Shown: piece after piece, positions 752 through 47,047 of the stretch
Position numbering within the stretch: the first letter of the stretch is position 1
Layout of the letters: each line of letters opens with the position of its first letter
Origin: Pycnopodia helianthoides
Taxonomy: Eukaryota > Echinodermata > Asteroidea > Forcipulatida > Asteriidae
Reading direction: 5' to 3'
Length of the DNA stretch: 64,000 bases
NCBI GenBank assembly: GCA_032158295.1
Contig: CM063257.1
Coordinates: 12,851,303 to 12,915,302, forward strand
Notes under the pieces: model-generated
What the model was told of the DNA's origin: nothing
Databases searched by the model: none
Seen by the model: the letters and a program-made list of their open reading frames with translations, nothing else
Position numbers and translations under genes: made by a program

Positions 752-842
752 AGGAAAGTTAAACAGCTGGCATTTTCAACCAATAGTAGGTGCACAAAAG
801 AATTTAACTCATCCACCACCCATGTGATCACTGACGATGCAG
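752..842 (+). CDS. BRCA1: BRCT1 exon a (BRCA1-like)
   Basis: Ninety-one bases open as R-K-V-K-Q-L-A-F to T-T-H-V-I-T-D-D-A. The acceptor is a TTTGTGCAG and the donor GCAG|GTAACA; it starts in phase 0 and ends in phase 1. The S-T-T-H-V-I-T stretch matches the conserved TTHV strand of the first BRCA1 BRCT, preceded by a helix of the right length. The Ser-Gly pair that contacts phosphate in human BRCA1 would be in the preceding exon, which I cannot find here. Confidence 0.7.
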
Positions 843-3800
843 GTAACATAACCAAAGCGTACATGGCTTTGAATATCTTGAATATTATTGACATATCAAA
901 GTGATTGTTATGCAATATAAGCCATTTAGATAAACAACAGCCACATGTCGTTACAAGCAGTTGTCAAGTTATCCTAATGTTTTACAAACTTGTAGAATTT
1001 TTCATATAAACAAATAATTTCTTCACAATTTTTTGAAACAGTCACAATTCTGATTCATGATTTTCATGAATTTTAGTAGGCCTGTTCAATATGCATACAA
1101 TTTGTATTTTTAAATCATAGATGGTGAAAACGTGGCCAGAAGGAGTTACAAGCTCTTCCAAGGACTGGCTGCCAAAGTGTGGGTGGTGAGCTACAAATGT
1201 AAGTGACTTTAACACCAATAAATGTGACGCTGTTATTATTGTCTTAAAGCTTGTGAGGTTTATAAGTAAAGATTTGAATGCTCAGTATAGTGCATCAATT
1301 TGCCATGTTACCAATTCTATATTTTTTGGCAACATGTGGTTGTACTTACTTGCACGTATGATGCTTGTGTTTACATCTCCTCATGAGAAGAACATGTACA
1401 ATTTATTGGATAGTCAGTTTGTTGTAGTTATATTTACATACACAGCACCGTACTTTGCGCAACAATGTCACATAAATGCATTGCTTTCGCTGGTGGTGAA
1501 TTATGCAATAGGAGGCGCTGAATATTCATTAGTAAGATAGCGTTGGACCAACGGCCGATTTAGGGTCTGTCCGTAGAATGTGGTCACGTGGACCAGGGAG
1601 TCCTTGTTGGTAACTACAAGTTATAGGAAATCTCCTTATGGCTCGATATGCTCATTGATTGATTGGATATTGGTATCTCACGAGAGGGCGTCATTATCCA
1701 AAAAGTTACAGTAAGTTTTTTAACACTATTGACATAAATTATTCAGTGTGCATAATAATAACTCGACAACTGTCAATCACTCCTCCATCATTTCCTTAAT
1801 TATTTGTGTATTGTTTGCAGGGGTAACAGCTTCGTTGAAAACGGGGGTCTTACTCCCAGAAAAGGACTTTGAAATCCAGAGAATTTGGACCAACGAGCTG
1901 AGTGAGGCAGATTTACCTTCACGGTGTGTACGGCTTGCCAGTACAAGCAAACTCTTTGCCAAGTACATGTTTTATGTTATTGGTCAATCTGTAGATATCA
2001 ATAAAGGTATGTATGTTTCAAGTTGATTAAAATTATGATGCATAATATGATCATGATAATATATACACCTGATGAGAAGATCCTTTTCATTAGATTGGAG
2101 GATTGGAGGTGGCACGGATTAGTCACACCATTTTATGGAGTGAAATAGAAAGTTGCACCCTCTTAATTTAAGTAATCCTATTATTGCTGATCCAGTTAAG
2201 GTTGTATTGAAAACCTGGATGTGACAGCAAAATTAAGGTTGAGGGTCTTTATGTGACATAGAGGTCAACAGGACCAGGTTAATACTTGGCTGCAGATTGG
2301 GCCACAGCACCTTTTAACCATTACATGGTGCTATAAAAAGGAACAGGTGTCATACTTAGCTATGCATACCTTAAAGGAAAACACTGAGCACTTTGAGACA
2401 CACGTCGGGTGTGATAAAGCTCTATATATAAGAATCGGTGTCATGCTTTACCCAGCACCCCTATCTGACTACAGAGGGCACTATTTCAGTTCTTTTCTCG
2501 TGCGTTTATCTTTTCTGTATGTTCGGCAGTTATTGTGTGACCATTAGTTTTGCTGTTGTGTTCCGAGTGAAGGTTGCACATACGGAATAAAAGCTTTTTC
2601 CTTTACAGTTACAATTATTAATATTATTATTATAATATAAAAACACAGATTTTATATAGTGCTTTATCACACCCGAAGGGCGTCTCAAAGCGCTCATTAT
2701 TTTGCTTCAAGGTATGTGGAGCTTTGATTGGACCCAGGTCCTTTACATAGCACCTTTTAATGGTTTACAAGGTGCTTGTGGCATAGTCTGCAGCCAGCCA
2801 GACCAGAAAACACCGGTACCAACAGCTTTACATCTTATCCGAAGGACAAAGCAATCATGGTTAAGTGTCTTGCCTCATGACACAAGTGTCACGAACAGGA
2901 CTCGAACCCACACTCTGCTAATAAGAATTAACTGAGCTTGAGTCTGGTGCTCTAACCGCTCAGCCACAACACCCCCTCCAAAAAAAAAAAAAACAAACAA
3001 ACAAACACCCCAACATCCCCCCAGTCTTTAAATAATTGATAAATGTTAATTTAATTGAAAAAAAGTGTGCTAAAAATTGCAAAAATATCTACTGAACTTT
3101 CAAATTTAAGCCCATTTTCCTTTAATTTGGTAGGGAAAAAAATGAGCAGTGGGAAGTGTTATTTTGGAGAATGCTAACCAAAAAGCAACTTTGGGTCAAA
3201 ATTGTCACTTTTCCATTTCCCAAACCCCTCCCCCAGTTGTTTGGGCAAGTTCAGAGATTGCCTGAAATGCTGTTAAAATTGTTTCTCTGGGCAGATCAAG
3301 TACTTCATCTGCTGAGTTTGTGTGGTGGATCTACTTGGAAATGGACGCCCGAACGTAGTTGCAGGACAGATACAAATGAATATGCTGTTGTATTCATTGG
3401 GTCAGATTGGAGAAATCATCCATTTTTCAGGATATTTAATGGTATGTGTATTCAATTATTTGTACATGTGTGTATGGTTCAAAACTAGAGAGATAAAAAT
3501 GAATTAATTTGTTTCAATGTGCAGAGGTGATGCTAAAAATGAAAGGAATGCAGTGTAAAATTACTACATGAATGCTAAAAAGTTGATAGTAAATACAGTA
3601 GTTGTGTATATTGTACATAAGTACATTAATGGAAAAACGGGTAAGCATTTTATCAACACTGTTTTTCAATAACTTGCAGGAAATTTTACCAAATCGGGGT
3701 TTTCTTGTCCTGAAAACACAAGCCCGAGCACTAATCGGTTTATGAATGGATTATTCAATGACTGAACTCTTCCTTGGCATGCGTCACATGTGATGTAGGC

Positions 3801-6796
3801 CTACAAGAGGTCAAATAGTAGCAAGTTACAATGTCAGGGAACATTTTTTACACAGGCTTCAGGAAATAGCAGGTTGGAATATTTTTTCAGTTACACTTGT
3901 TTCAACGGGAGGGAAAGGTCAAGTTGGGTCACATTCTGAAATAAGATCTTTTGAAATGTTAATCTTTGAATGTAGTTTCACACCCAATTGAGGTCATCTG
4001 CATTCAAATTTGTACATTTATTCGAGTGTTGGAGTCTCATGAGCTTTTTCTATTATGGCAATTTTGTTGTTAATTAGGTTCAGATAGAAGGAGAAAGCAA
4101 GGTAACAAAAAAAGAGTCCAGAACAATAGGTAACAATAGGTGTCAAAATTTTTTGTTTATTTTTTTTTTTTTTTCAGTCTTGTTTGATGTATTTATTTAG
4201 TGCTCAATAAATGAGCTGGGGCAGGTTGTGTACAATAAATTTTAACCCATTAACAATATAAATGAATAATGACTTGTGTTTCCTGTTGTTATAGCTTCAC
4301 CACACAATCATGTGCCAATCATCACATTAGACTGGGTGTTTGACTGTATCATGTTGTATGCCATCCAGCCCATAATAAACTACGCCGTACATATCCCAGA
4401 TGTTAATGCAGGTAGGCGTAACTGAAGATAGTCACTTACAGTTTGTCATGCCTTTCTTAATTTTTTGAATAAGCTTTTTGAAGAAATTTAAACTTATGAA
4501 TTAGCTTTTTGAAGAAATTATAATTTTCGCAGTTTAAGGAAGTAGTTTTAAATCAAAATTCTGGATGGTTTTGCATTATACATATCTTTTTTCCTTTTTT
4601 TTATGCAAATAGACTGGATATAAGTGCTCTTTGAAAAAAATGTAAATCTCTCAGTTATACTCCACATCTTCAAATAACCACTTACAAGAGTCCAAATTCC
4701 CAAACTTTGGAAATTGGGATGGGGAATGGCCCATAGGATCATTTTCCAAAATGTGCTTATTATTTGACTCGTTCATAAAAAGTAAACAAGCAAAAATGGG
4801 AGTATCTTGTCTCAAAATAACATGTACTCCTTACCATATCATGGGTCTGCCTTGACAAACAAAAAACGATAAGCATACATTATTTCAAACTGTCAAACTT
4901 TCAAACTGTCGTACAGACGTTTCAGAATCGTCCCCCACCCCCATGTTTCAACACACTTTTATGCCACCGACTACTTGAAAAAATGTGTTTTCATGTTATA
5001 TCAAAATAAAATATCAAAGCAAATGGACAATTCATGTGGGCACCACTGGGTCTCAATGACAACAAGTTATGCTGTATGAGTCACAGGTTTTTACATTATA
5101 TAGTACCTGCGAGCGGTTCATTGTTCCCTAAATTCACGAAACTTTGCTTTAAAGGAAAAATGCAACGGAGAGCAAATTTAATTTGATTGTGACCTGACAT
5201 CTTTTGATTGTGACCTGATCTAATTTCTTAGATCGAATATTGAGGACTTCCGGATCCTTATGCAGGTTAATTGTTATTATTGTTTTCAGTTGACAGGGAT
5301 GACTCTGATGAAGGAACTCAAGGAGGTGACTCCCATGATGGAGGTAAAGGAGGTGACTCCCATGATGGAGTTAAAGGAGGTGACTCTGATGATGGAGTTG
5401 AAGGAGGTGACTCTCATGAAGGAGGTAAAGGAGGTGACTTCCATGATGGAGTTGAAGGAGGTGACTCTCATGATGGAGGTAAAGGAGGTGACTTCCATGA
5501 TGGAGGTAAAGGAGGTGACTCTCATGATGGAGGTAAAGGAGGTGACTCCCATGATGGAGTTGAAGGAGGCGACTCTCATGATGGAGGTAAAGGAGGTGAC
5601 TTCCATGATGGAGGTAAAGGAGGTGACTCTGATGATGGAGGTATAGGAGATGACTCTCATGATGGAGGTATAGAAGGTGACTCCCATGATGGAGTTGAAG
5701 GAGGTGACTCCCATGATGGAGGTAAAGGAGGTGACTCTGATGATGGAGGTAAAGGAGGTGATTCCCATGATGGAGTTCAAGGAGGTGACTCCTCCCATGA
5801 TGGAGGTAAAGGAGGTGACTCTCATGATGGAGTTCAGGGAGGTGACTCTGATGATGGAGGTAAAGGAGGTGACTCTGATGATGGAGTTCAAGGAGGTGAC
5901 TCTGATGATGGAGTTCAAGGAGGTGACTCTGATGATGGAGTTCAAGGAGGTGACTCTGATGATGGAGTTCAAGGAGGTGACTCTGATGATGGAGTTCAAG
6001 GAGGTGACTCTGATGATTCAATTAGTGATGGAGGTGACTCTGATTATTTATTAAGTGATGGGGATGTCTCTGATGATGGAGTTGAAGGAAGTGACTCCCA
6101 TGATGGGGGAGATGAAGTTGATTCTCATGATGAAGATACAGGAGGTGAGTCTAGTCATTGTTCATTAGATGATGATAGAACAGTTTGTCAACTTCCAATA
6201 CCTGTGGAGGTAGTATGGACTGTTCTCCCTCCAACTATGTTTTATTTAGATATTAGTGAATCCCACCTAACCTTGTTTTGCCCAACCAGAATAAACAACC
6301 AGCAAGAGATCTGATATCATTTATTATATATGTGGTTTAATTGTACCCTTTTCAATAGACTCAAAGGCTATGTATATGAAGGATATTAAAACTTACTTTT
6401 TGAAATATTTTTTTTCATTTGTAAAGGAAATAAACATAGTGCTGAACCACAGGTAATACATATATTTTACTGTTTCTTAACATTAATCATGACAACTCTT
6501 GCCAAACCCAAGCACTTACATGTTAAAAGACAACCCCTTAAAAAAAAAAAAAAATAAATAAATAAATTGGGGGGGGGGGGGCTTCCATTGAGCACGGTTA
6601 AAAATTAAGTTAATCTTATAACCAATACAACCTTTAGATTGTTTTCCTCTTTTTATCTGTTTAAAATTTTGTGCCTAAATTAACACAGTTACTGTTCTTT
6701 TGTTTTAATTTTAACAAACAACATTAATTATAGTTTTGTTTATTTTTGTGTTTGCATTGAAACATGTTTATTGTTTTGTGTTTTTGTGTTTTTGTG

Positions 6797-6831
<35 letters not shown>

Positions 6832-9800
6832 CCCCTGGAAAGGAGTTTCCACTTAACTCTTGAAAAATCATGACATTTAAAGTTGTTATGTTCAAGAAGG
6901 AAATGCCTACTCATTGAGCTTTTTTATTTTTATTTTTATTTTTAAGGAGTCTTGAAAATTTTACCTTATAAGGAAAATAGCCTCAAATTTATGTGCAACC
7001 CCGCAAGATACATATTTTGCTTTAGGAGTTTCCTAGTCTGCATTAACTGTTCATCATGATGCATGCTCAACGTTTAAGTCAATGCAACAATGTGATGTCT
7101 TGGTCATGTTTGTCGTGGTCAGGGCTATTGTTTGTGGGTCAAACTAAAAGGGAATGGCACCTCTTTCATTCTCTCATTAGTGTAGGAGACTTAATATTAT
7201 TTTTATCTGTTGTTTTCATTTAAGGTTTTTGCTTGCATTTATTGCTTTTAATCGCTTTTTGCTAGTTTACCTTTATAGTGCAATCTTTACAACCTAGGCT
7301 GTTACTATGAACAAAAGAAAAAGGACTGGTTTGTTCGATATGTCTGTGGCTCTATCAACGATTACTTTCAACAATGAGTTGTACATTTAGACCTGCGTCT
7401 GTCTCCCTTTATACATGTACGTGTAGGAACATTATAGTTCCCTATTATTGAATGTAAAACATGTAAAGTGGTTGAATAATGAAAAAGCAAAGTTGTGCTC
7501 TTTAATTTACTGCATACATGTGAGGTTTGCAGGGTCCATTAACAGTGTTGCTGACTCGAATCGGTGACTTGGATGCGATTCTGACTTGTGTTACAATTGT
7601 TGAGAATTTGACTTTGCTTGGCTTTGCCTTGACTTAAAAAAACATTACTTGCAGCTTGATTTTATTTGAACAAAAATGACAGTAGACTTGACTTTGGGAA
7701 AAATTACTTGGTTACAACAGTTTATATTGGTATTTAGGGAATGAGGGTGGGTGCTTTTTGGTGATTATCAAAAAAGGAAAACAAAATCTGTATTTAAATC
7801 ATATTGGTGTGAATTTGGAATTTGCCTTTTGTACGGAAGAAAAGAAATTAGAGAGATGCACAGGTGGTCCTCTAGTAATAAAATTATGTTTTCTTGATTT
7901 CAAAATTAGGATGAGACACGGAATGAACCACTTAGAAGACCAAACCGACCTTGTATCTACTGCGGCCTAATGCAGACACAACTTAGCCGTCATCTAAAGA
8001 GAAAGCACAGAAAAGAAGAGGAGGTCAAAGCCGCACTCCAGCTACCTCGTACAGAAAGAATTGAAGCAATGAGTCAGATAAGGAAAGATGCAATCTTTCA
8101 AGAAAATGTTAAGAGAATAAGGACTGACTGTCGGCAGCCATTGTTGCGAGAGCGTCAACAAGGAGATGCAGAAGTTGTCATGTGTGGACAATGCCATGGA
8201 TTTTATAGCTGTTCCCGCATATGGCGCCACAAACAAGTTTGCCATAGGGCATGTAGTAATAAAGTGTCGTCAGTGCCTGTTACATCATTGCTTCAAACTG
8301 AAGTTGGAGGGCGATTTAATTCCGAGGTTCTTCTTCGTTTTCGTAATGACGACATTGGATCAATCTGCAGGAGTGATCCGATGATAGTCCATGTGGGAAA
8401 AAAGTTATGGGCAAAATCTGTGCAAAGAGCAAAAAGTATCATTATGAATGATATGAGGAAGTTGGGTAACTTACTTCACAAGATGAGGTGCATTTCAGAG
8501 AACACGACCCTCACAGGGGAGGATATTTTAAAGAGACAAAATTTCAGTTTATTGGAGAATGCTCTTGACAGGCTTACAGACAAATCTTGTGATGAGATTA
8601 AGGCAGGACTCCGATTAAGTTTGGGTTACCTTATTAAAAAAGGTGCAAAAGTCATGAAGGCAGTATACATCATGAATGACAGATTGGTCGATAGCCTGGA
8701 AATTGACAGATTTTTGTCAGTTTTGGACCTCAACTGGGACTTCCTGTTCAGTCGAAGCCTGCATGTGGTGGAAGCAAAACGACAAGCAGTTCTCAGAAAG
8801 CCTCAGTCCATGCCACTGGAAGAAGACATCTCAAGGCTTCGAAGTTACATAGTTAAATCAATGGAAGAAATTGTTAATGGTGATGAAGCATTGTTTAGTG
8901 GGAAATTTTTCAACAAGTTGAGATCCTTGGTCGTCAGTAGACTAACATTCTTCAACGCTAGACGGGGTGGAGAACCATGCAGAATGACGCTCAGTGAGTG
9001 GGAAGATGCAAAAAATCAGGCATGGGTTGATCCCCAGCAAATAGAAGCAGTAAAAGATCCATTGGAGAAAGCTCTTATGAACTCCTACAAGCTAGCTTAT
9101 CAACGGGGAAAGGGTTCTAGGAAACTAGTCCCTGTCTTGATCCCTAATGACACGGTTGCTCCTATTGAGATGCTAGTAAAGATGAGAAATGAGGTTGGTG
9201 TGTCTACAGATAACGTGTACCTTTTTCCATTTACACAGCGATCAGCTGGTCATGTGAATGGCTGGGCTGAGATGAAGAAAGTAACAGATCTAATGGGGGA
9301 ACAACTCAAAAAACCATCTCTGCTGACAGCCACTAAGTTTCGTCACAGGGCATCAACTTTGTATGCCCTACTAGATGTTCCGGAGAAAGACCGCACCATT
9401 TTTTACAAACATATGGGTCACTCAGCCGAAATAAATGCCAACATCTATCAGTGCCCTCTGGCGGTAAGGGAAATTACTTCAGTTGGACGTTATCTGCAGG
9501 GCATAGATGGCAAGTCCCAAACTGACAACTCAGGTGGGTATTTCTTTCTTTTTCTCTTTTTGTTCGCAACAGTAGTTGTAGCAATAAGTACATGGTTTTT
9601 AATGTTCAAGAACAAGTCGTCCTTGAAGCTTTGAAAAACTGCTGTTTGTGTCAACAAAGATGATAATATGTTTTTATTAGAGAATTTCAAAGGTTTTTTT
9701 TCTTCTCTTCCCTCAGCTGTGACGCAAAAAGAGAAGAGAAAAGTATCTGGACGACATATCAGTCAACAAAGACAAGACCATCTGTCATCAACCCAAGAGA

Positions 9801-12800
9801 CTGATTGTGACTCGCCACCAGGTAGTTATTTCATCTTGAATAAAGTGTTTACAAAACTGATTTTTAATTTTTTGGGTTTGTTTTAATGCTGATAGTTAAT
9901 TTGTCTCAAAAGAAAAACAACAAATAAGCCAAGCTAAATAATTATATTAAACACTCTTTTCCCTCAGCTGTGACCCCCAGAAAGAAGAGAAGAGTGATTG
10001 GTGGAAGAAAGGACCATCCGCAATCACTAACCCATGAAGCTGATTACAATTCATCACCAGGTAGTTATATTATTTTAACATACTTCACAAAACTTAAAAT
10101 TGTTTTGTAATGTCCTGTTTTTAATTGTCCCCATTACAAAAAAAATACCAACCTAAATAATTATATTAAACACTCTTTTCCTTCAGCTGTGACCCCTAGA
10201 AAGAAGAGAAGAGTGATTGATGGAAGAAAGGACCATCCGCAATCACTAACCCATGAAGCTGATTACAATTCATCACCAGGTAGTTATTTTTTAATTTTTT
10301 AATTATACTTCACGAAACTTAAAATTGTTTTGTAATGTCTTGTTTTGATTTGCTTCAATTACTAAAAAAGTACCAACCTAAATAATTATATTAAACACTC
10401 TTTTCCTTCAGCTGTGACCCCCAGAAAGAAGAGAAGAGTGATTGATGGAAGAAAGGACCATCCGCAATCACTAACCCATGAAGCTGATTACAATTCATCA
10501 CCAGGTAGTTATATTATTTTAACATACTTCACAAAACTTAAAATTGTTTTGTAATGTCCTGTTTTTAATTGTCCCCATTACTAAAAAAATACCAACCTAA
10601 ATAATTATATTAAACACTCTTTTCCTTCAGCTGTGACCCCTAGAAAGAAGAGAAGAGTGATTGATGGAAGAAAGGACCATCTGCAATCACTAACCCATGA
10701 AGCTGATTACAATTCATCACCAGGTAGTTATTTTTTAATTTTTCAATTATACTTCACGAAACTTAAAATTGTTTTTGTAATGTCTTGTTTTTGATTTGCT
10801 TCAATTACTAAAAAAATACCAAGCTAAATAATTATATTAAACACTCTTTTCCCTCAGCTGTGACCCCTAGAAAGAAGAGAAGAGTGATTGGTGGAAGAAA
10901 GGACCATCCGCAATCACTAACCCATGAAGCTGATTACAATTCATCACCAGGTAGTTATATTATTTTAACATACTTTACAAACTTAAAATTGTTTTGTAAA
11001 GTCTTGTTTTTCTTTGCTTCAATCACCAAACAAATACCAATCTAAATAATTATATTAAACACTCTTTTTCTTCAGCTGTGACCCCCAGAAAGAAGAGAAG
11101 AGTGATTGATGGAAGAAAGGACCATCCGCAATCACTAACCCATGAAGCTGATTACAATTCATCACCAGGTAGTTATATTGTTTTAAAATACTTTACAAAA
11201 CTTAAAAGTGTTTTGTATCGTCCTGTTTTTATTTGCCCCAATCACTAAAAAAAATACCAACCTAAATAATTATATTAAACACTCTTTTCCCTCAGCTGTG
11301 ACCCCCAGAAAGAAGAGAAGAGTGATTGATGGAAGAAAGGACCATCCGCAATCACTAACCCATGAAGCTGATTACAATTCATCACCAAGTAGTTATATTT
11401 CTTCAACGTACCTTACAAAACTGAAAATTGTTTTATATACGTTTTCTGTCACTGGTTTATTTTCCCCAATTCCGGAAAAAACAAGTCGACTGGTTAATAA
11501 TTGTATTGAACAATCTTCTCTTTCAGCTGTGACGCACCTAAAGAAAAGAAGAGTTGTTCCTCAACATATTAGTCAAGATAGACGGAAGGCGGAGTCCAGC
11601 TCATCTTCAAGTAAATATGTAGTTTTCAAGAAAATACCTTTTTTTTCGCAGCTTTTTTTGCATAGTCCCTTAGAATCAATTGCAATAAACTTGCAATGAT
11701 GAAATGCATTAGTGTAATAGTAGGAATATTACAATGACGTCATCCCCTGTAATGTGATGTCACATCTTACAGATATGTGTTTTAAATCTTTGAAAATCCG
11801 TATGAAATCAACCACAAGAGACAGTTTCTGTATACAAATGAATACAATTGAGTTCTAGTTAATTTATTTCTACCTTAGCTGATACGACCCCCCACAAAAC
11901 CAGGTGTGGAATCCCTCTGACACTACAAAGAAGAACAAAGCAACACTCCAAAAGATGTCATATTGACTCAGGTATTCAATTCATTTCAAAGTATTAATTT
12001 GCTAATATGACAATTACATCTCTTTTTGAAGGTTGTCCCAGTTTGTTATGTACTCGTTTGCACATTTTTCAGTGTTTGACCTCGTCAATGCTGATCTAAG
12101 CAAGGGTTCTAAAATCATCTGAACGTTTTTTTAATAAAAAAGATGAAACTCACCAGAAAAGGACACGAGGTAGAATTTAATGTTATGAGTGACACCCACA
12201 AAAACAAACTGCAACTATTGTTTGTTGGGGTGTTTGTATTCTTGTTTCCTTCTTTTTTTCTGAGAACTGCATATAAGAGTCAATGTATTCTTGATAGCAG
12301 TTAATCACAGTTCGATTTAATTAATCAATTGTTCTTACACACTTAAGTTTAGCGCACAAATTCTGGGCAGTGTTATCCATTTTGGATTTTAAGAAAATGA
12401 ATACAAAATCAAATACTATTTACTTGGGAATACAAAATGCAATTTTTTATTTTTTTATTTTTTTATTTTACAATTATCCGAAATTAGCAATAATAATATA
12501 ACAATTTGGGAGGCTAATCATCCTTACTGGCAGCTTAGAAGCTGAATTGCGAAGGATGCGGCTACAGTGTGTTCAAGTCATGCAAGGGCGCACTAGGCAG
12601 CCAGCCACGTTGACCCATAATTGAACACGGTGCAAAGCCTGAGATCGAAAGTGTTTGATTTTTTCGGGGGGGGGGGGCGGAGGAAAACCTTCGTAACATA
12701 GGAGAGAACCAGTCCACGTCTCTATTCACATAAGCCGGGAATGGAACCAGGGCCATATTGGTGAGAGACGAGCGCTTTAGCACAAGCCACCCATTCCACC

Positions 12801-13841
12801 CATACATAGGATTTTGTCATGAATACTAATTTAACTGTAAGCTTAATTTAGTGTTTTAATTTGTTGTACTAATCACACAGGGAGAGGTTATACAAAATGG
12901 TCAGCAAAGGATACAGCATATGTTAGAGAGGAATTCAAGACCTACATAATGGACAAGCAGTTTTTAGGCTCAAAAGGATCTCTCCCAGGTAAGATTAAAA
13001 AAATTAAGTCAAACAACCAGTGCTAAGATTGATCTTCAGTGCAAATAAATCTTAATTGCTAAGCAAAGTATGATGTCGCAATAGAAATCACTGTGGTAAC
13101 ACTGACTACTTATCTTAAGATCTTGGGCAAAACTAATTTTAAAAAGTGTAAAACATTTAATGTAAAAGAAAGACTTAGTTTAAGGAAAATAACAAAATAA
13201 ATACACGGTTTTTAATCTAGTATTTTATATTTTGGAAGCAGTCCTATATTGATGTGGTCTGCCAACATTTTAAAACATGCAAACGAATATATACTTGTTA
13301 CACAGAATAAATCCCACCTGCTTCCCAAGCCTTTATCAGAAAGAATAAAACTTCTTTTTGGCAACTAAATAGATGACACAACACATGATATCCCATCAGA
13401 ACGTTGAAGAAGTATGAATAATTGTATTGCTGTAGGACACCAGTGACCTGAACCCATCCACTAAAAACACTAGAATATGAGGTCAGTATACACACGTACA
13501 CTAAAATACTCGGCCACAACATTCCGCAATTGGGTTCACAAGTCAGCTGGCACTGCTCTTTTTAATGAGTTTCAAAGAAGAGTGTTTTTTTTTACAGATA
13601 CACGTGTCTGCTGAATCAGAAAGATTCCTTTAATCCCTGAAAGGCTTGATTTTTTGTTTTCCAATCTACAGGTAAAATTCAGGTGGAAAATTTCATGACA
13701 AAGTTTCCCCACATCTTGAAAGATGTGGGATCAAGGCAGAAGGTCCTCCTTATTAAAACTAAGGTGTTCAATGAGCGAGGGAAGGAGCGACGAATCCACA
13801 AGATGAAACAGGAAAGGAGGATATTTGTAATTGCACACTAA
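752..13841 (+). CDS. BRCA1: BRCA1-type BRCT / zinc-finger tyrosine-recombinase fusion gene (20 exons, 5' partial)
   Basis: Gene-level entry. Exons: 752-842, 1121-1198, 1821-2006, 3295-3441, 4295-4411, 5290-6144, 6427-6452, 7910-9533, 9717-9821, 9968-10060, 10187-10279, 10412-10504, 10631-10723, 10858-10950, 11076-11168, 11296-11388, 11527-11610, 11879-11971, 12881-12988, 13672-13841. Every junction is GT-AG, phases agree throughout, and the total of 4,335 nt is divisible by three and ends in TAA. Predicted order by residue: BRCT1 about 1-80, BRCT2 about 85-200, acidic repeats 207-491, zinc fingers near 515-533 and 592-612, recombinase core about 850-1015, basic repeats 1042-1321, Myb-like C-terminus about 1353-1420. 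BRCA1 family proteins bind phosphoserine ligands through the BRCT pair in DNA-damage signalling. The rest resembles Crypton-like tyrosine recombinases. Whether one transcript joins both halves is inference; nothing in frame offers an ATG between 5290 and 7969. Confidence 0.6.
1121..1198 (+). CDS. BRCA1: BRCT1 exon b (BRCA1-like)
   Basis: Seventy-eight bases, phase 1 to 1, acceptor ATCATAG, donor AAAT|GTAAGT. It encodes GENVARRSYKLFQGLAAKVW followed by V-V-S-Y-K. Alignment by eye to human BRCA1 places an Arg at the R1699 position and a Lys at the K1702 position. Those residues contact the phosphopeptide main chain and phosphate in the known structure, so the ligand-binding face seems kept. The frame is spliced directly into W-V-T-A-S-L-K of the next exon, giving the BRCT tryptophan motif. 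Confidence 0.75.
1821..2006 (+). CDS. BRCA1: BRCT1 end, linker and BRCT2 start (BRCA1-like)
   Basis: One hundred and eighty-six bases, phase 1 to 1, acceptor TTGTTTGCAG, donor AAAG|GTATGT. With the split codon it completes the motif W-V-T-A-S-L-K and then V-L-L-P-E-K-D-F-E, which matches the end of BRCA1 BRCT1 (a WVTxS helix and an acidic xDFE). After a linker of about 25 residues comes S-K-L-F-A-K-Y-M-F-Y-V-I-G, matching the first strand of BRCT2. The invariant BRCT tryptophan is present at the position of human W1718. Confidence 0.78.
2625..2975 (-). repeat. tRNA-derived SINE (intronic)
   Basis: On the minus strand the right end reads GTTGTGGCTGAGCGGTTAGA, a tRNA A-box region of Leu/Ser type, followed about 45 bases on by GGGTTCGAGTCC, a canonical B box. 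The body then runs left through CAAGACACTTAACCAT to an AT-rich tail with TTATTAT repeats at about 2620. A second copy lies at 40650-41045 and a tail fragment near 20850. Confidence 0.75.
3295..3441 (+). CDS. BRCA1: BRCT2 exon a (BRCA1-like)
   Basis: One hundred and forty-seven bases, phase 1 to 1, acceptor TCTGGGCAG, donor AATG|GTATGT. It encodes QVLHLLSLCGGSTWKW (helix 1 and the GG turn typical of BRCT folds) and later A-V-V-F-I-G-S-D-W. In human BRCA1 the same place reads as a helix ending in L-C-G-A-S. An overlapping open frame from 3322 could use a different acceptor at 3316, but its phase does not match the following exon, so this frame is preferred. Confidence 0.75.
4295..4411 (+). CDS. 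BRCA1: BRCT2 exon b with tryptophan motif (BRCA1-like)
   Basis: One hundred and seventeen bases, phase 1 to 1, acceptor TTGTTATAG, donor GCAG|GTAGGC. It encodes VPIITLDWVFDCIMLYAIQP, matching the last strand and helix of BRCA1 BRCT2 with the conserved Trp (human W1837 position), and ends in A-V-H-I-P-D-V-N-A. BRCA1 proteins normally stop shortly after this point. Reading into the intron gives a TGA at 4424-4426 after four more codons, so a conventional BRCA1-like C-terminus could form by intron retention. Splicing to 5290 instead gives GTT (Val) across the junction and continues the frame. Confidence 0.8.
4412..5289. other. Intron between the BRCT exons and the acidic exon
   Basis: About 880 bases of AT-rich sequence. 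I looked for an alternative first exon for the downstream recombinase: ATG-to-donor possibilities near 4796, 5070 and 5260 all end in phase 0, whereas the next exon needs phase 1. No convincing promoter, ATG exon or repeat is visible. This absence is part of the case for splicing from the BRCT exon. Confidence 0.45.
5290..6144 (+). CDS. Acidic 9-residue-repeat exon (GGDSxDGxx)
   Basis: A single 855-base exon, phase 1 to 1, acceptor TTGTTTTCAG, donor GGAG|GTGAGT. It encodes about 26 copies of a 9-residue unit, GGDS(H/D)DG(G/V)(K/E/Q), from a 27-bp DNA repeat, followed by about 45 degenerate acidic residues. The only visible length change inside the array is a 3-bp insertion near 5791, so the frame is kept. 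Low-complexity, strongly acidic and likely disordered, it would be a flexible linker between the BRCT pair and the zinc fingers. I know no function for this repeat. The reverse-strand and +2 open frames over it arise because 27 is a multiple of three. Confidence 0.7.
5305..6020. repeat. 27-bp tandem repeat inside coding exon
   Basis: About 26 copies of a unit beginning GGAGGTGACTC and containing GATGGAG. Variation is by single-base changes that give H/D, G/V and K/E/Q in the encoded unit. The last six or so units (about 5870-6010) are almost identical and read DDGVQ, suggesting recent expansion at the 3' end. Confidence 0.9.
6427..6452 (+). CDS. 26-bp microexon joining acidic and zinc-finger exons
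   Basis: The acceptor is a T-rich tract ending GTAAAG and the donor CACAG|GTAATA. It encodes roughly G-N-K-H-S-A-E-P-Q with the split codon. The acidic exon ends in phase 1 and the zinc-finger exon starts in phase 0, so direct joining would shift the frame. This exon has exactly the length needed (2 + 24 bases) to correct the phase. Support is the splice signals and phase only; a different small exon elsewhere in the 1.8-kb gap could do the same. Confidence 0.45.
6453..7909. other. Intron with homopolymer tracts
   Basis: Contains a poly-A/poly-G stretch near 6540-6580 and a T tract of about 30 near 6800-6828. The small open frame at 7758-7970 has a non-ATG start and runs across the true acceptor at 7909, so I treat it as chance. 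Confidence 0.5.
7910..9533 (+). CDS. C2H2 zinc fingers plus tyrosine-recombinase-like domain
   Basis: A 1,624-base exon, phase 0 to 1, acceptor AAAATTAG, donor TCAG|GTGGGT. The frame opens with a finger C-x2-C-x9-H-x4-H (R-P-C-I-Y-C to R-H-L-K-R-K-H). A second C-x2-C-x11-H-x3-C-H finger follows about 60 residues later. The C-terminal 170 residues fit the tyrosine-recombinase catalytic fold: ARRGGE gives box-I Arg and Glu (Arg codon at 8963), TKFRHRAST gives the second Arg (9341), MGHS gives the Gly-His (9416-9421), and NIYQ gives the candidate nucleophile Tyr (9446). The His of the usual HxxR is Thr here. The layout resembles a Crypton-like family of zinc-finger recombinases in fish and marine invertebrates, as I remember it. 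The first in-frame ATG (7970) would cut the first finger, so the start must come from an upstream exon. Transposon copy versus domesticated gene is unresolved. Confidence 0.85.
9717..9821 (+). CDS. Basic tail exon 1 (diverged repeat exon)
   Basis: One hundred and five bases, phase 1 to 1, acceptor TTCCCTCAG, donor CCAG|GTAGTT. It encodes A-V-T-Q-K-E-K-R-K-V-S-G-R-H and ends D-C-D-S-P-P-G. It is a diverged relative of the seven downstream array exons: same A-V-T start, same basic cluster, same Ser-Pro end. A cluster of the K-x-K-R-K type could act as a nuclear localisation signal. Confidence 0.7.
9968..10060 (+). CDS. Array exon 1 (93 bp, PRKKRRV motif)
   Basis: First of seven near-identical symmetric (phase 1-1) exons. 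It encodes A-V-T-P-R-K-K-R-R-V-I-G-G-R-K, then DHPQSLTHEADYNSSPG. The acceptor is TTTTCCCTCAG and the donor CCAG|GTAGTT. The basic heptad fits a monopartite nuclear localisation pattern. Confidence 0.72.
10187..10279 (+). CDS. Array exon 2 (93 bp)
   Basis: Same 31-residue unit as array exon 1 except I-D-G-R-K for I-G-G-R-K. The acceptor is TTTTCCTTCAG and the donor CCAG|GTAGTT. Its downstream intron is of a second sequence type (TTTTTTAATTTTT start) that recurs after array exon 4. Confidence 0.72.
10412..10504 (+). CDS. Array exon 3 (93 bp)
   Basis: Encodes the same unit with I-D-G-R-K. Exon and following intron closely match array exon 1 and its intron, supporting duplication of a two-exon block. 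Confidence 0.72.
10631..10723 (+). CDS. Array exon 4 (93 bp)
   Basis: Same unit with one change, H-L-Q-S in place of H-P-Q-S. The intron after it matches the one after array exon 2, consistent with a duplicated exon pair. Confidence 0.72.
10858..10950 (+). CDS. Array exon 5 (93 bp)
   Basis: Same unit with I-G-G-R-K, as in array exon 1. The acceptor has the TTTTCCCTCAG form also seen at exons 1 and 7. Splice signals are intact. Confidence 0.72.
11076..11168 (+). CDS. Array exon 6 (93 bp)
   Basis: Same unit with I-D-G-R-K. The acceptor is CTTTTTCTTCAG and the donor CCAG|GTAGTT. Its downstream intron has drifted more than those between exons 1 and 4. Confidence 0.72.
11296..11388 (+). CDS. Array exon 7 (93 bp, altered last base)
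   Basis: Same unit, but the last exon base is A rather than G (CCAA|GTAGTT). This weakens the donor and turns the split codon from Gly or Ala to Ser or Thr. The following intron is more diverged, marking the end of the near-identical array. Confidence 0.62.
11527..11610 (+). CDS. Basic tail exon 9 (diverged, 84 bp)
   Basis: Phase 1 to 1, acceptor CTTTCAG, donor TCAA|GTAAAT. It encodes A-V-T-H-L-K-K-R-R-V-V-P-Q-H and ends in a Ser-rich S-S-S-S-S. It keeps the A-V-T start and K-K-R-R-V basic cluster of the array exons, so it is an older copy. Confidence 0.62.
11879..11971 (+). CDS. Basic tail exon 10 (93 bp, strongly diverged)
   Basis: Phase 1 to 1, acceptor CTACCTTAG, donor TCAG|GTATTC. It encodes D-T-T-P-H-K-T-R-C-G-I-P-L-T and a basic Q-R-R-T-K-Q-H-S-K-R segment. 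It has the same length as the array exons and the same phases, so it may be an ancient member. The frame and splice signals are the main support. Confidence 0.5.
12540..12812 (-). repeat. tRNA-derived SINE in the intron before the Myb-like exon
   Basis: On the minus strand the head has GGTGGCTTGTGCTAAAGCGC and the B-box-like GGTTCCATTCCCGG, followed by GGTTCTCTCC and a body with a C-rich tract. This is a different SINE family from the one at 2625-2975. A 12-base G tract (about 12666) lies in its middle. Confidence 0.6.
12881..12988 (+). CDS. Myb/SANT-like C-terminal exon a
   Basis: One hundred and eight bases, phase 1 to 1, acceptor AATCACACAG, donor CCAG|GTAAGA. It encodes GRGYTKWSAKDTAYVREEFK and then T-Y-I. 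In the remembered zinc-finger recombinase family the C-terminus has a Trp-led helical segment of this kind (K-x-W-S/T-x-E-E). I read it as a Myb/SANT-like DNA-binding unit; the exact subfamily is not certain. Confidence 0.7.
13672..13841 (+). CDS. Terminal exon of the recombinase gene
   Basis: The acceptor is TTTTCCAATCTACAG. It continues GKIQVENFMTKFPHILKDVG, then basic N-E-R-G-K-E-R-R-I-H-K-M-K-Q-E-R-R, and stops at TAA 13839-13841. It completes the helical segment begun in the previous exon, and the basic end would suit DNA contact. No AATAAA is visible within about 2 kb downstream; a TTTATT lies just after the stop but on the wrong strand. Confidence 0.72.
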
Positions 13842-16043
13842 TTTTATTTCTCAAGTGCAAATACTTGGGTCATTCCAGGTCAATCCAACAGGCTTTTGGA
13901 CCTGACCATCACATAATCAAAGTTTGGTTTACTGGTTGGACTCATTAAGAAACCCCACTAAGAAAACTTTATGAAATTCAACTTTATTTCCGGAGACATA
14001 GGTTAGCGAACTTTTGACTAATTACCTCGACACTCTGTGTTTGGATAACCATACTTGAAAAGTAAAGCAGCTACATCATTTTAAAGTTCTTGAGATTGCC
14101 TTCATTTGCAAAATCTTCAAAGAATTTAAGCAAAAATTTGACATTTGACCTTAATTTGCAATTTTTTAACCATGGGTTTTTACATAAATTCTTGCATCCA
14201 CTCTGCTTAAAAATGATGAGCGTCAAAGCACTCATGGACATCAAGACACAAACTAATGTGCGAAACAGAACTCACAGTGATAAACAGCAGATTTACACCA
14301 TTTAAATCCATGTACATTGCATAAAATGCTATTTTATAGGTGTGTGCATTTGAACACAGGGTCAAGCTAATTAGTCAAAAGTTTGTTAACCCACATCTCA
14401 GAAAGTAATTGTCAGCATTATATAAAATATCGGTTCTTGGGGGTTTCTCAAGGAGTCCAACCAGCACACCAAATTTCACTTTCAATCTGTGACAGACGGG
14501 TCCAAAAGCATGTTGAATTAACATGGAATGACCTACTTGTACAAACATTTTATGACAAATTGCAAGGAATACTTAAAACGAAGGCTTCAGATACAGAAAA
14601 AAACCAAAAAACTTTCTCTTTCAATTTTTTTTAGTTTTGACCTTTACTTTAACCTCATGGATCTTGTGACCCTGAGCTCTAGTGAAAACACATGCCAATG
14701 TGTTTTCTACAAGTTAAACACAAAATCGTGGTTTAATATTATTTGTTTGCTTATTCATAAAATGATACGCCAACTTTGAGAAAAGGTAAAAAGCAAACAA
14801 TATTACTTTACCTCCAATTTTTTTTCTTCAGAAAACAGTGATTTTTAAAACTTGGACCTCTTGATTCTTAGGTCATATTTAAGGTCAAACTGTAAATTGT
14901 GTTTATAAAGACCAGCAGTGTGCCCAGGATTTTTTTCACTAAGGGGGCATGTTTTACAAACACAACACGTCATCAAAATACTTGACGTTTTCCTAAGTAC
15001 TAAGAAATTACTAACATAAATTGGAACATTTCAACTACAATACATGGTGTATGGACACACAAGTTTTTATTTTGCAAAGGCCATAAACAAATCAACACAT
15101 CAGAGATAGAAAACATGAGAGGATTTTATTATCACAGCTACATTTAAGGGTATGGTATGAATTTGTTACAGATATGTAAGTTTTCTTTCCCTTAAATCTG
15201 AGCCCTTGTTTAGGCCTAAGTTTTCTCAGAAAGGAAACAAAAAGATACTGATCGATCGAGAGATTCATTATGTAAATGATGTTAAGTTGTCGCCCTTTAT
15301 AAATTTATGATAGTTGGATTCTGAAGTGTGTTGTAATAATACAGTTTTCATGTTAAGTATCAAGTATCAAGTATAAAAAACATTTATAAAAATATAAAAG
15401 TCCAAAAAGATTCCTGGAAATGGGATAGTATAGTACGTTTGAGGCTTATACAGTATACAGTGTAATTCCAGTTGGTACACTGATAAATGGCTCTTAAAAG
15501 GGAGTGAGTAATCAAACTGGTGCTCTGAAGAAAACAAAAATACAGCGTATTGCCAGGGAGGTTTTTCTTTCAAGAGATCATTTTTTTTTATTGAATTCAT
15601 GTATTTGGAATCGTTTTATGAGGGACGCTTTAAATGTGTGGCGGGCAATACCATGTACCCTCGCCCCTACCCTCCCCATGTAGCTACACTGCTAAGTCAA
15701 AGGCAAATCACAGATTATTATAACAAGATTAAATAAATTAAACATGGTAGATAAACATTTGTTTCGGAAACGTTTATCTGTGTTTGGTATTTTTGTTTTC
15801 ATTAATATGTTTATAGGCAAAGACCCTATTTATTAAAAGAAACAAATTAAGACAATTTCACCAATAAAGCTATGTTTGTGTTTTTACAAGTTGAAAAATA
15901 AAAATTTTAAAGAAATTTATAGGAAATGTTGGTTTTCCTCTATCCTTCTGGTTCTTTTAAACATTTTTCTATTTCACCCCTGTTCGTCAAAAATCTTTGT
16001 TTTCATAAGCATAATCTTCCAGTGTTTTGATCTTTTGAAGTCG
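13842..16043. other. Intergenic, AT-rich, no supported gene
   Basis: No open frame here exceeds about 83 codons or shows a recognisable protein. A hAT-like end (CAGTGTGCCCAGG) starts at about 14921 and a possible partner end (GTAGCTACACTG) lies at about 15693, but the flanks do not match. I see no other structure. Confidence 0.4.
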
Positions 16044-16425
16044 TTAAAGGAACATTACAGAATTGGTATTAAAGAACAAAACTTGTTAAATATACTTTTT
16101 GATCACAGATTTACATTAAACTTACACGGTCTAATGATGATGATAGTAGAAAACATCCCTCGAAATATTTCTGTCTGAAATGCCATATTTGATGAGAAAT
16201 GAATAAACTAATTTTCCGATTGGAGTTTATCGCTCAGTGAGCGTTTTATTCATTTGTTGAATCTATATGATTTCATGCAAATGTGTAATCGGTTTTTCAC
16301 TAATTTCTCGTGACCCAGGTGGCCGATCGATCTCAAACCTCTACAGGTTTGTCAGTTTATGTATATGGTGGATTACATAAAGTGCTTACACTGACAGAAA
16401 CTGTTTTGTTAGCAACTCTTTTATT
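16044..16425 (+). mobile_element. MITE, 5' end and body (3' end lost)
   Basis: Starts TTAAAGGAACATTACAGAAT and matches the intact copy at 46650-47047 for about 370 bases, including CGCTCAGTGAGCG and GGCCGATCGATCTCAAAC. The right terminal inverted repeat has decayed or been deleted after about 16420. Confidence 0.8.
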
Positions 16426-22817: not shown

Positions 22818-24005
22818 TCAATTTTGATATCGAGCAAACAAAATATTGCCATTGAGGGAGGGGAGGGAGGGAGGGGGAAAGCTAAAATACAGGCCGTACT
22901 GCTTCCTACGGCCATGATACTGGGTGGCGTAATAAACCAGTGGTTGTATTGTGGCCGTTATAAATTGTGACTGAGGCTTCCACAGGCTGTCAACTCGTTT
23001 TACGACTTTCAATATGTGTAGACTGCCATTGTTTGTTTTTAACCATTTCAAACTGGAGGAAAGTTGGACTCCCAAAATATTTGTGGTATCAAGTTTATTG
23101 AGAGTGATATTGGTCAATCTGGGAGCAGGAACGTTGATTGAAAGGTTTTTGGAGAAGGAGATTGGCATGTAAGCGCAATTTTCAGATTAGTATTATTGTT
23201 TTTATTTTCTCCAGCTCTCAGTTGACCTTTTTGACAAATGTATGTTGTTATTTGTGCATGACACTTGGCTTGTTATTATTTTTTTTTGTAGCTTCATCGA
23301 CGGACTTGGGGCAGTAATTGACGATGGCGTGTCGTTAAGGGCTTCATTGATCAATACGAGAAATCCATTAGGGCCAAAAATCATACCTTGGGGGAAACCT
23401 CCGTTCAGTGAAATCCATGACCAAACTGTATCCCTGTACCGTACACATTGTGATCGTTGATGGAGAGAGCTGCTTAACCATGCGATTAAGGGGGATCTGA
23501 CGTTCATATGAAACAATTTGCGAATGAGGATGTTATGATCTTTGTGATCAACTGCTCTGCGAAGGTCATTAACAACTAAAGTGCGTTGAGAATCCCGTTT
23601 ATCTGCGTCCTTGTGTAGAGCGTCAGAAATCAACAGCCCAAATTTGTAGAGTTGGGCTGTTTTGCCCGTGGAAGGGCCAGCAGTTGTACTCCTGCAATTA
23701 CCGAATTCGGTTTGGGTCGCTATGCTGTTCAATGAGCGACCGATTACGAAAGGATTCGGCGAGCTTTGTGAAGTTTGACGAAGTTTGTTCCACACTACAG
23801 GCTTACTTGATGGAATTGGAACTAATACAGCTTTACGCTACTGTGGTGGGCACGACACTCTCAGCACAAGATTTATTTTAACATTTTTTTTTTTTTGCGA
23901 GAGGGGAACCCAATTCATATAAAAACTCACGAATTATCTTGCTGAGATTTCCATCAGGACCACCTGCTTTCCCACTTACATAGAATGCCGCTTATTATCG
24001 GAACA
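22818..24005 (-). pseudogene. Degenerate LINE reverse-transcriptase fragment
   Basis: Read right to left on the minus strand. The stretch near 23920-23990 gives G-G-P-D-G-N-L-S-K-I-I-R-E-F, the finger motif of non-LTR reverse transcriptases. The open frame at 23202-23795 gives DLRRAVDHKDHNILIRKLF, then G-G-F-P-Q-G-M-I-F-G-P-N-G-F (the PQGSxLGP block, altered). The frame at 22818-23168 gives T-N-I-L-G-V-Q-L-S-S-S-L-K-W and I-Q-P-L-V-Y-Y-A, typical of the thumb region in Jockey/CR1-like elements. The catalytic Y-x-D-D segment is not readable and frames are interrupted, so it is inactive. Confidence 0.75.
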
Positions 24006-33838: not shown

Positions 33839-34208
33839 TTTGAACAATGGAGTGACGTCACAGAAATGGTTTAATTATTGCTACACTAGTGTTTATTTAT
33901 TCATTATGTCATACTATTTCATTCATTATCAATACTTTTGTTTCGTCATTTACCTTATTTTCAAAAAATTTGCTTCGCCGTGTAAAAACAAAATAAGGGC
34001 CAATCACATGTTCGTTTGTCATTAAAGTATTGGATTTAAAAATGGAATTAATATTTGTAAAAAATATATATAACAAAGTGAAATAAATAAATATTTAACC
34101 AGAGAGCTACAACAAGTTTAAAAATGAGAACTCAAACATTACAACGTTCATCATGGTGTAAATCCTACGGGGAATTTTTTTTTCTCTGGGATACTTTAAA
34201 GTCAAGAA

Positions 34209-34599
34209 TTTAAAGGTACACGTTGCCTTGAATCGGCAGAGTTGGTCTATAAAAAGCGTTTGTAAACCGTTTGTTATAAAATTCATATGGTTAGAAAGAT
34301 GTTTTAAAAGTATAGTACAATGATCCACACAAACATGCTTTGAAATTGCGTGGTTTTCCCTTTACATCGTGAACTAACACAGTCGGCCATTTTATGGAGT
34401 CAAACTTTTGACTCCACAAAAAGGCCGACCGTGTTAGTTCGTAAAGTTCAAGTAAAACCATGCAATTTCGAGGCATATTTGTGTGGATCATTGTAATCTA
34501 CTTTAAAACGTCTTTCTAACCATGCATTTTATAACAAACGGTTACAAACGTTTTTGTATAGACCAACTCGACCGATCCAAGGCAACGTTTACCTTTAAA
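34209..34599. mobile_element. Full-length 391-bp palindromic MITE
   Basis: From TTTAAAGGTACACGTTGCCT to AGGCAACGTTTACCTTTAAA the two halves are reverse complements almost throughout, centred near 34404 (CAAACTTTTGACTCC). Transcribed either way it would fold into a hairpin of nearly 195 bp. A truncated relative lies at 20093-20290. Confidence 0.9.
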
Positions 34600-35139
34600 T
34601 ATCTAGGCATTAGCCGTTGATAACAGTTACACAATTCAGCGCTTAACAGGGGAAATTAATACACAATACAGACATTACAATAATTACAAAATACAATATA
34701 AAAACATTTAACAGGTCTGGCGTAATATTCTTTCGATATCTTTGCCCTTGGACAAATCTGAAAAAAAAGTTTATTAATAAGGGACTAAATATCCTGCCCG
34801 ATTTAAGAAAGCCGGAATAATGGGTTTTCATCGGGGATTTGAACTGATTTTCAGTCTTTTAATTAAGTGTTCATGTGGTGTTGCATAGACTTACAGAGTG
34901 CAGGTGATAGGAGTGTGAGGAAGAGCCATGACCGTACGTTACTAGGTGTAAATGATGAGACAGAGCGAAGATTTCGAGATGGTTTGTGTGTGTGTGTAAA
35001 TGAGTTCCTGAGGGTACGCATGTGAAGGGCCTTCGATAAACGTATTAAAGCGCCAGCTTACCTTCGTTAATCTATCAAAATTATCAAGTAATAAACCACA
35101 GGAAAAACTGAATGGGTAAATTTATAAAAATAACAAAAT

Positions 35140-35300
35140 TGGTTGACCATAGACAACATGACTAGAGTGGGATTTAAACCAACGACATCCGGATTGATGT
35201 GCTGCTAAAATAGGGCTAGATAGCTCATTTGGTAGAGAACCGGTACGTTAATACGTTACTTAGGAGGTCTTTGGTTCAATTCCTGCTCTAGTCATTTTGT
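35140..35300. repeat. tRNA-like inverted pair (SINE head remnants)
   Basis: The plus strand at 35213-35293 has TAGCTCATTTGGTAGAG (A-box like) and GGTTCAATTCC (B-box like) closing with CTAGTC. Just left, at 35158-35200, ACTAGAGTGGGATTTAAACC is a reversed B-box region. Mismatches in both boxes make a functional tRNA unlikely. Confidence 0.5.
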
Positions 35301-37854: not shown

Positions 37855-38032
37855 AAGAAAACAAAACAAACTTAAAAGATCTAGAAAGAACCAGTAAGCT
37901 CAGAGCTGAAATGACGTAAAAGACTATAAAAAAACCAGTTAAGTCAGAGCGGAATAACTTGTAAGACCTAGAAAGACTGAGTCGGCTCAGAGCAGATGAC
38001 CAATACCTTGAAAGACATTGGCCTAGAGCAGA
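37855..38032 (+). repeat. Degenerate tandem repeats before the 46-bp array
   Basis: Three eroded units of about 50 bases share CTAGAAAGA, CCAGTTAAGTCAGAGC-like and CTCAGAGC words, leading directly into the 46-bp minisatellite. They may be an older related array. Confidence 0.5.
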
Positions 38033-46649: not shown

Positions 46650-47047
46650 TTAAAGGAACATTACAGAATTGGTGAGAAGAAAAAAAACTTGTCAAATATA
46701 CTTTTTGATTACAGATTTACATAAAACTTACACGGTTTAATGATGATGATAGTAGAAAGCATCCCTTGAAATATTTCTGTCTGAAATGCCATATTTGATG
46801 AAAAATGAATAAACTAATTTTCTGATTGGAGTTTATCGCTCAGTGAGCGTCTTATTCATTTGTTGAATCTATACGATTTCATGCAAATGTGTAATAGGTT
46901 TTTGACTATTTTCTCGTGACCCAAATGGCCGATCGATCTCAAACTTCTACAGGTTTGTCAGTTTATGTATTTGGTGGATTACATAAAGTGTTTACACTGA
47001 CAGCAACTGTTTTGTTATCAAAAACCAATTTTGTAATGTTCCTTTAA
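46650..47047. mobile_element. 398-bp MITE, intact, TTAA-flanked
   Basis: Left end TTAAAGGAACATTACAGAAT, right end ATTTTGTAATGTTCCTTTAA. The interior matches 16044-16425 at roughly 90%, and part of it (ACATAAAACTTACACGGTTT) also matches the element near 61.0-61.24 kb. It has no coding capacity. Confidence 0.9.

What the first reader, a model, noticed from the sequence alone, without database searches (positions are those of the whole stretch)
752..13841. BRCA1-type BRCT pair apparently spliced to a transposon-derived zinc-finger tyrosine recombinase
Seen: twenty plus-strand exons with GT-AG borders and agreeing phases give one open frame of 1,444 codons. The first five encode tandem BRCT domains with the K-V-W-V-V-S-Y-K-W and T-L-D-W-V-F-D-C-I motifs; later exons encode C2H2 fingers and R-E, R, G-H, Y recombinase residues. 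Known: BRCA1 normally ends just after its second BRCT, and Crypton-type tyrosine recombinases have repeatedly been recruited as host genes. Inference: a phosphoserine-reading, DNA-damage module may have gained a recombinase-derived DNA-binding partner. I know of no description of such a fusion.
Basis: partly seen in the sequence, partly recalled or inferred. Interest (0 to 1): 0.92.

Follow-up and report, generated by a model that had tools for sequence, protein, structure and literature searches.

The report
BRCA1 tail beside a recombinase gene
In DNA that likely comes from a sea star, the last exons of the DNA-repair gene BRCA1 are followed on the same strand by a predicted tyrosine-recombinase gene; they are likely two separate genes, but a strong splice signal just before the BRCA1 stop codon would let some transcripts fuse them.

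The parts
752..842 (+). BRCA1 exon: middle of BRCT1, frame 0, ends in phase 1; the start of BRCT1 would lie upstream of the window
1121..1198 (+). BRCA1 exon of 78 nt; encodes the equivalents of R1699, K1702 and F1704 and most of the motif VWVVSYKW
   Evidence: human numbering by the alignment to chain 1t2u; pocket residues named in PMC4747905 (one passage)
1821..2006 (+). BRCA1 exon: end of BRCT1, linker, start of BRCT2
3295..3441 (+). BRCA1 exon: BRCT2
4295..4425 (+). Last BRCA1 exon if not spliced: TLDWVFDCI motif, then ...IPDVNAGRRN and stop TGA 4423-4425
   Evidence: sequence; three of four vertebrate BRCA1 hits end at about model residue 200
4411..4412 (+). Exon/intron junction cag|GTAGGC, 10.24 bits, phase 1: the donor needed for the fusion
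   Evidence: 12 of 3,828 plus-strand GTs score as high; 0 of 229 GTs inside the model's exons
5290..6144 (+). Acidic, glycine-rich exon: 27-bp tandem repeats (GGDSHDGGK), no in-frame ATG; reading on past 6144 gives a stop at 6312-6314
6427..6452 (+). 26-nt bridging exon (phase 1 to phase 0)
   Evidence: first of 60 phase-compatible candidates by summed splice score
7741..7746 (+). Possible independent start exon of the recombinase gene: ATGAGG|GTGGGT, phase 0 to 7910
   Evidence: 14-17% of stretches of that length hold such a candidate
7952..8008 (+). Zinc finger 1, C2H2 (CIYC...H...H)
   Evidence: sequence; H28 and H33 nearly invariant
8183..8242 (+). Zinc finger 2, C2HC (C92, C95, H107, C111 of the exon)
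7910..9533 (+). Main recombinase exon, 541 aa; predicted YR fold at about residues 146-530 (8345-9499); R352, E355, K401, T475 (where the classical His is expected), R478, H504, Y513
9717..11610 (+). Nine small basic exons, seven of them 93-nt near-identical repeats that each encode PRKKRRV (resembles the SV40 nuclear import signal, recalled)
   Evidence: the Acanthaster relative P0005 has a comparable repeat linker, modelled with low confidence as if disordered
11879..11971 (+). Linker exon
12881..13841 (+). Two exons (12881-12988, 13672-13841, with an intron between) of the C-terminal domain of the recombinase family, with the stop codon
   Evidence: P0005 52% over model residues 1354-1442; helical domain in the P0005 model

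Best explanation
The window holds the 3' end of a BRCA1 gene and, right behind it on the same strand, exons of a widespread animal protein family with a predicted tyrosine-recombinase fold, and these are likely two tandem genes rather than one obligate fusion. BRCA1 would end at TGA 4423-4425, just after its second BRCT, as BRCA1 normally does. The downstream protein has two zinc fingers, a recombinase core with five of the six classical catalytic residues, a linker rich in nuclear-import-like motifs and a C-terminal domain predicted to be helical; it would bind DNA through its fingers and the recombinase core and may still cut and rejoin it. A strong, phase-matched donor at 4411 would let a fraction of transcripts skip the BRCA1 stop and splice into 5290 and on into the recombinase exons, making a BRCT-acidic linker-recombinase isoform. 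Shown: open frames, splice-site borders, homologies. Predicted: the fold. Inferred: which stop, start and splice sites are used, and all function.
For: The BRCT pair matches BRCA1 best (1.1e-19). Three of its four internal introns fall in the same codon and phase as human BRCA1 introns, and the fourth within three residues (human positions recalled; alignment), so this is a BRCA1 gene copy with its introns, not a retrocopy. Unspliced, exon 4295 meets TGA at 4423-4425, 29 codons after the conserved Trp (human 26, recalled); three of the four vertebrate BRCA1 hits end at the equivalent of residue 199-200 (the fourth, P0004, ends inside BRCT2). An AATAAA lies at 5005. None of the 120 listed recombinase relatives has a BRCT match at E 0.01, among them Acanthaster planci P0005, 831 aa, 63% identical; their lengths were limited to about 520-1670 aa by the search. 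An independent ATG exon with a good donor lies at 7741-7746.
Against: Donor 4411 is a rare strong site: 12 of 3,828 plus-strand GTs reach its score, 0.7-1.1% of 60-nt stretches hold one, and it also matches the phase of 5290. Acceptor 5290 is reached by only 42 of 3,368 plus-strand AGs. Exon 5290-6144 is open in only one of six frames and has no in-frame ATG, so if it is coding it needs an upstream exon; the only ATG exons of the right phase found in the gap (donor score 4 or more) are two short ones that share one middling donor, 6.66. A stop within five codons of an intron start has a 26% chance anyway. P0005 is an isoform model that starts inside the recombinase exon, so its true 5' end is unknown.
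Confidence: 0.55

Rival explanations
1. One gene: in this animal BRCA1 itself has gained a C-terminal acidic linker and a whole zinc-finger tyrosine recombinase, spliced as the 20 exons say. The BRCT pair would bring the recombinase-derived DNA-binding part to phosphoproteins at damaged or replicating DNA, or the recombinase part would tether BRCA1 to DNA.
For: Rare strong phase-matched donor 4411 and acceptor 5290; donor 6144 is the strongest of the plus strand; exon 6427-6452 is the best of 60 bridging candidates; no in-frame ATG in 5290-6144. Precedent: some members of a sister clade carry an N-terminal SET domain (KMT5A-type in P0098, the one tested), then a linker (tandem repeats in P0057), then the same finger-recombinase part. 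KMT5A-like genes with N-terminal SET domains and similar C-terminal ends, likely this family, are expressed in Hydractinia and sea urchin embryos (PMC10368294, passages).
Against: TGA four codons past the donor, near the normal BRCA1 end; acceptor 7910 is weak (-3.84), though two other acceptors of the model, 1121 and 12881, also score below -2; the bridging exon is only 26 nt. Donor 6144 is one base away from the repeat unit GGTGACTCT, so it could be chance (sequence). No BRCT-recombinase protein was found in searches covering 794-5054 aa, though no echinoderm BRCA1 was found either.
Confidence: 0.33
2. BRCA1 has gained only an acidic repeat tail: exon 4295-4411 splices to 5290 and the frame runs on past 6144 to the stop at 6312-6314. 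The recombinase gene is separate and starts at 7741.
For: The acidic pattern continues for about a dozen codons past 6144 in the same frame; the best-scoring independent start for the recombinase lies beyond it.
Against: Donor 6144 (GAG|GTGAGT, 12.21 bits) is the strongest of the plus strand; several relatives have tandem-repeat or acidic stretches in front of the first finger, which suggests that the acidic exon belongs to the recombinase.
Confidence: 0.09

Closest known systems
BRCA1 (BRCT pair)
   Same: Best PDB match over model residues 15-199; R1699, K1702 and F1704 equivalents kept; intron positions as in human BRCA1 (human positions recalled).
   Different: Four of the five residues of the Phe+3 pocket listed in PMC4747905 (passage) differ: L1701Y, N1774D, M1775I, L1839F. 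S1655 and G1656 lie outside the window. A strong donor precedes the stop.
SET-domain / recombinase genes of Hydractinia, Hydra, Clytia, sea urchin and Haliotis (P0075, P0102, P0112, P0057, P0098)
   Same: Same finger-recombinase family behind an N-terminal SET domain, in P0057 with a tandem-repeat linker; the SET of P0098 is KMT5A-type.
   Different: The SET-labelled rows sit in the other main clade; none of the 16 rows of the window's clade carried the label. Here the possible partner is BRCT. PMC10368294 reports KMT5A-like genes of this build without the word 'recombinase' in its main text.
Acanthaster planci LOC110983333 and LOC110990770 (P0005, P0006)
   Same: 63% and 58% identical recombinase; P0005 also shares a basic repeat linker and the C-terminal domain.
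   Different: Predicted without BRCT.
Cryptons and Crypton-derived host genes (KCTD1, ZMYM2-4, QRICH1; PMC3212892, passages)
   Same: Animal tyrosine recombinases recruited into host proteins; that paper also discusses a Crypton-like YR inside the ATF7IP gene that might be spliced into the host protein, without transcript evidence.
   Different: No Crypton-derived domain among the Pfam matches of 43 members.

Membership tests
BRCA1 | BRCA1-type tandem BRCT | tested here: met
   BRCA1 1.1e-19, BARD1 1.6e-6; Pfam BRCT and BRCT_2 above cut-off
BRCA1 | Phosphoserine pocket (S1655, G1656, K1702) | tested here: inconclusive
   K1702 equivalent kept; the S1655 and G1656 equivalents would lie upstream of the window; residues named in PMC4747905
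BRCA1 | N-terminal RING domain | not testable with these tools
   Would lie outside the window; the window's own genome could not be searched
BRCA1 | Protein ends just after BRCT2 | tested here: inconclusive
   Met if exon 4295 is not spliced (TGA 4423-4425), not met if donor 4411 is used
Tyrosine recombinase | Tyrosine-recombinase fold | tested here: met
Tyrosine recombinase | Catalytic R, K, H/K, R, H/W, Y | tested here: inconclusive
   Positions assigned by motif: R352 42/43, K401 40/43, R478 41/43, H504 43/43, Y513 43/43; the box-II His position is Thr (25) or Asp (12) and never His
Crypton | Match to a Crypton-derived domain (DUF3504, recalled as PF12012) | tested here: inconclusive
   Not among the six families listed for 43 members at E 0.01; the profile may have been renamed
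Host-transposase fusion gene | One transcript that carries both host and transposon exons | not testable with these tools
   No transcript data

The most novel reading that the evidence does not exclude
Sea-star BRCA1 has swallowed a whole zinc-finger tyrosine recombinase: one gene makes BRCT, an acidic repeat linker and a recombinase whose classical catalytic residues are nearly all in place. With the SET-recombinase genes of cnidarians, sea urchin and abalone, this would be a second kind of case in which the same recombinase family sits behind a chromatin or DNA-damage domain, pointing to a mobile family that repeatedly joins itself to machinery of newly replicated or broken DNA.
Probability: 0.33. 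Interest if true: 0.87.

Novelty: new variant of a known kind. Interest (0 to 1): 0.5.

Why it matters
If the splice is real, a core DNA-repair protein has a recombinase bolted to its phosphopeptide-reading end, which would be a striking host-transposon fusion and a natural experiment on BRCA1 targeting. Even if not, the work shows that a large, poorly named gene family of aquatic invertebrates, part of which was likely reported as expanded KMT5A-like methyltransferases, carries a predicted tyrosine-recombinase fold with nearly all classical catalytic residues conserved.

Tried and rejected
BARD1 instead of BRCA1: rejected. Sea-star BRCA1 or BRCT-recombinase proteins: two searches with the BRCT part (candidate lengths 794-2527 and 1588-5054 aa) returned 4 and 3 proteins, all vertebrate BRCA1s by name or domains. 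This says little about sea stars, because the S. purpuratus BRCA1 named in PMC8483008 (passages) was not returned either. Viral contigs with the recombinase alignment: 27 pattern matches, none a relative. A second recombinase or BRCT copy in the window: none by tblastn. Pfam and PDB sequence searches with the recombinase exon: no significant match; the family scan and the fold showed what it is. Source names without support: P0027 and P0107 are named SETD8-A and P0105 SET domain-containing, but Pfam found no SET in them. Openness of the acidic exon as proof of coding: weak, because tandem repeats keep frames open; it is nevertheless the only open frame of six. Neighbouring ORFs: seven scanned, one weak reverse-transcriptase match. 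Papers, judged from listings and abstract starts: BRCA1 + BRCT + 'tyrosine recombinase' gave two that look unrelated; 'tyrosine recombinase' + KMT5A none; BRCT + transposase + domesticated + fusion three, none on this by title; 'tyrosine recombinase' + metazoan + SET domain + domestication two reviews; tyrosine recombinase + crypton + echinoderm six. The main text of PMC12062965 has no occurrence of BRCT or tyrosine recombinase. I claim no wider absence from print. The four human splice names were not found together in one paper, so human intron positions are recalled.

Full report
What is there. The 20 exons of the finding were re-derived from the sequence. All borders are AG/GT, all phases agree, and the frame is open for 1,444 codons to a stop ending at 13841. 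The first exon begins at an acceptor 751 bases into the window, so the start of BRCT1 and the rest of the gene are missing.

BRCT part. The 206 residues match BRCA1 BRCT structures at 1.1e-19, BARD1 at 1.6e-6 and microcephalin at 1.2e-3, and Pfam BRCT above its cut-off. By the alignment, the residues equivalent to human R1699, K1702 and F1704 are kept, while L1701, N1774, M1775 and L1839 are Y, D, I and F. PMC4747905 (one passage) names these as phosphopeptide contacts; S1655 and G1656 would lie upstream of the window. The codons split by the introns correspond to human D1692, W1718 and D1778, all phase 1, and the fourth lies within three residues of A1823. The human exon ends are recalled, not from a call. 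This marks the five exons as BRCA1 gene structure.

Where BRCA1 would end. If exon 4295 is not spliced, the frame reads IPDVNAGRRN and stops at TGA 4423-4425. Three of the four vertebrate BRCA1 hits end at the equivalent of residue 199-200 (P0001, P0002, P0003); the fourth, P0004, ends inside BRCT2. AATAAA lies at 5005.

Splice evidence. 12 of 3,828 plus-strand GTs in the window score as high as 4411, and four of those 12 (4411, 6144, 9533, 12988) are donors of this model. No GT inside the model's exons reaches that score (0 of 229). Acceptor 5290 scores 4.32, reached by 42 of 3,368 plus-strand AGs. Exon 6427-6452 ranks first of 60 phase-compatible exons between 6144 and 7910. Acceptor 7910 is weak (-3.84), as are 1121 and 12881. 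Share of 60-nt stretches with so strong a donor: 1.1% on the plus and 0.7% on the minus strand; chance of a stop within five codons of an intron start: 26%. Possible independent starts with a donor score of 4 or more: 4993 or 5023 to 5035 for the acidic exon; 7741-7746 (ATGAGG|GTGGGT, 8.83) and 7082 or 7106 to 7117 (5.87) for the recombinase exon. Starts as good as the 5035 and 7746 ones turn up in 26-34% and 14-17% of stretches of that size.

Acidic exon. 5290-6144 is a 27-bp tandem array that frays towards its end. Only one of six frames has no stop, and it has no ATG; the clear repeat units are 9 residues, some 10, so length changes among them are in threes. 89 of its 284 residues are D or E.

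Family context. Of the 120 listed proteins, five carry a precomputed SET domain, confirmed above cut-off in those five among nine scanned; P0081 has a partial one below cut-off. The SET of Haliotis P0098 is KMT5A-type (3.3e-29); the others were not typed. 45 of 120 have more than 60 residues in front of the first-finger exon, several with tandem repeats. In a tree of 36 rows (37 of the 120 proteins chosen, 2 dropped as too short, plus the window) the window groups with the two Acanthaster proteins (100/100) in a 16-row clade without SET labels, and all six SET-labelled rows (P0081 included) lie in the other, 20-row clade (99/98; root drawn at the midpoint). Many rows are fragments, so a missing label is not proof of absence. 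PMC10368294 (passages) reports as many as 65 KMT5A-like genes in Hydractinia and 61 in S. purpuratus, most of the extra ones with N-terminal SET domains, with similarity between the two species at both ends; 'recombinase' does not occur in its main text.

Weighing. The strong phase-matched donor and the ATG-less acidic exon speak for splicing beyond BRCA1. The well-placed TGA, the independent start candidate, relatives without BRCT and the fact that BRCA1 normally ends here speak for two genes. I put two tandem genes with possible read-through at 0.55, one obligate fusion at 0.33, an acidic-tailed BRCA1 at 0.09.

Limits. No transcripts, no sister-species locus, and the window's genome could not be searched (15 unanswered calls, listed under Tried and rejected).

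Noticed in passing
window 13862-14539: A 666-bp element (13868-14533) with long inverted ends (GGTCATTCC...GGAATGACC), flanked by the 6-bp direct repeat TACTTG, begins 27 bases after the recombinase stop codon; it looks like a non-autonomous DNA transposon in the 3' UTR.
   Followed up: partly
window 9968-11388: Seven near-identical 93-nt exons in about 219-bp exon-plus-intron repeats, each encoding PRKKRRV; the Acanthaster relative has a comparable repeat linker, modelled with very low confidence.
   Followed up: partly
P0057, P0075, P0098, P0102, P0112: Genes with an N-terminal SET domain carry the same tyrosine-recombinase part; a reported expansion of KMT5A-like genes in Hydractinia and sea urchin may be this family.
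   Followed up: partly
window 23202-23837, minus strand: Reverse-transcriptase fragment (RVT_1, 7.7e-7, 29.5 bits against a cut-off of 29.6).
   Followed up: no
window 34208-34600: Inverted self-match of about 390 bp at 85% identity, possibly a palindromic transposon.
   Followed up: no
window 38032-38710: Minisatellite, 46-bp unit, 14.8 copies, 94% matches.
   Followed up: no
window 35214-35294: tRNA-like match barely above threshold (30.7 bits against 29).
   Followed up: no
window 16044-16415 and 46650-47021: 372-bp dispersed repeat, 93% identical.
   Followed up: no
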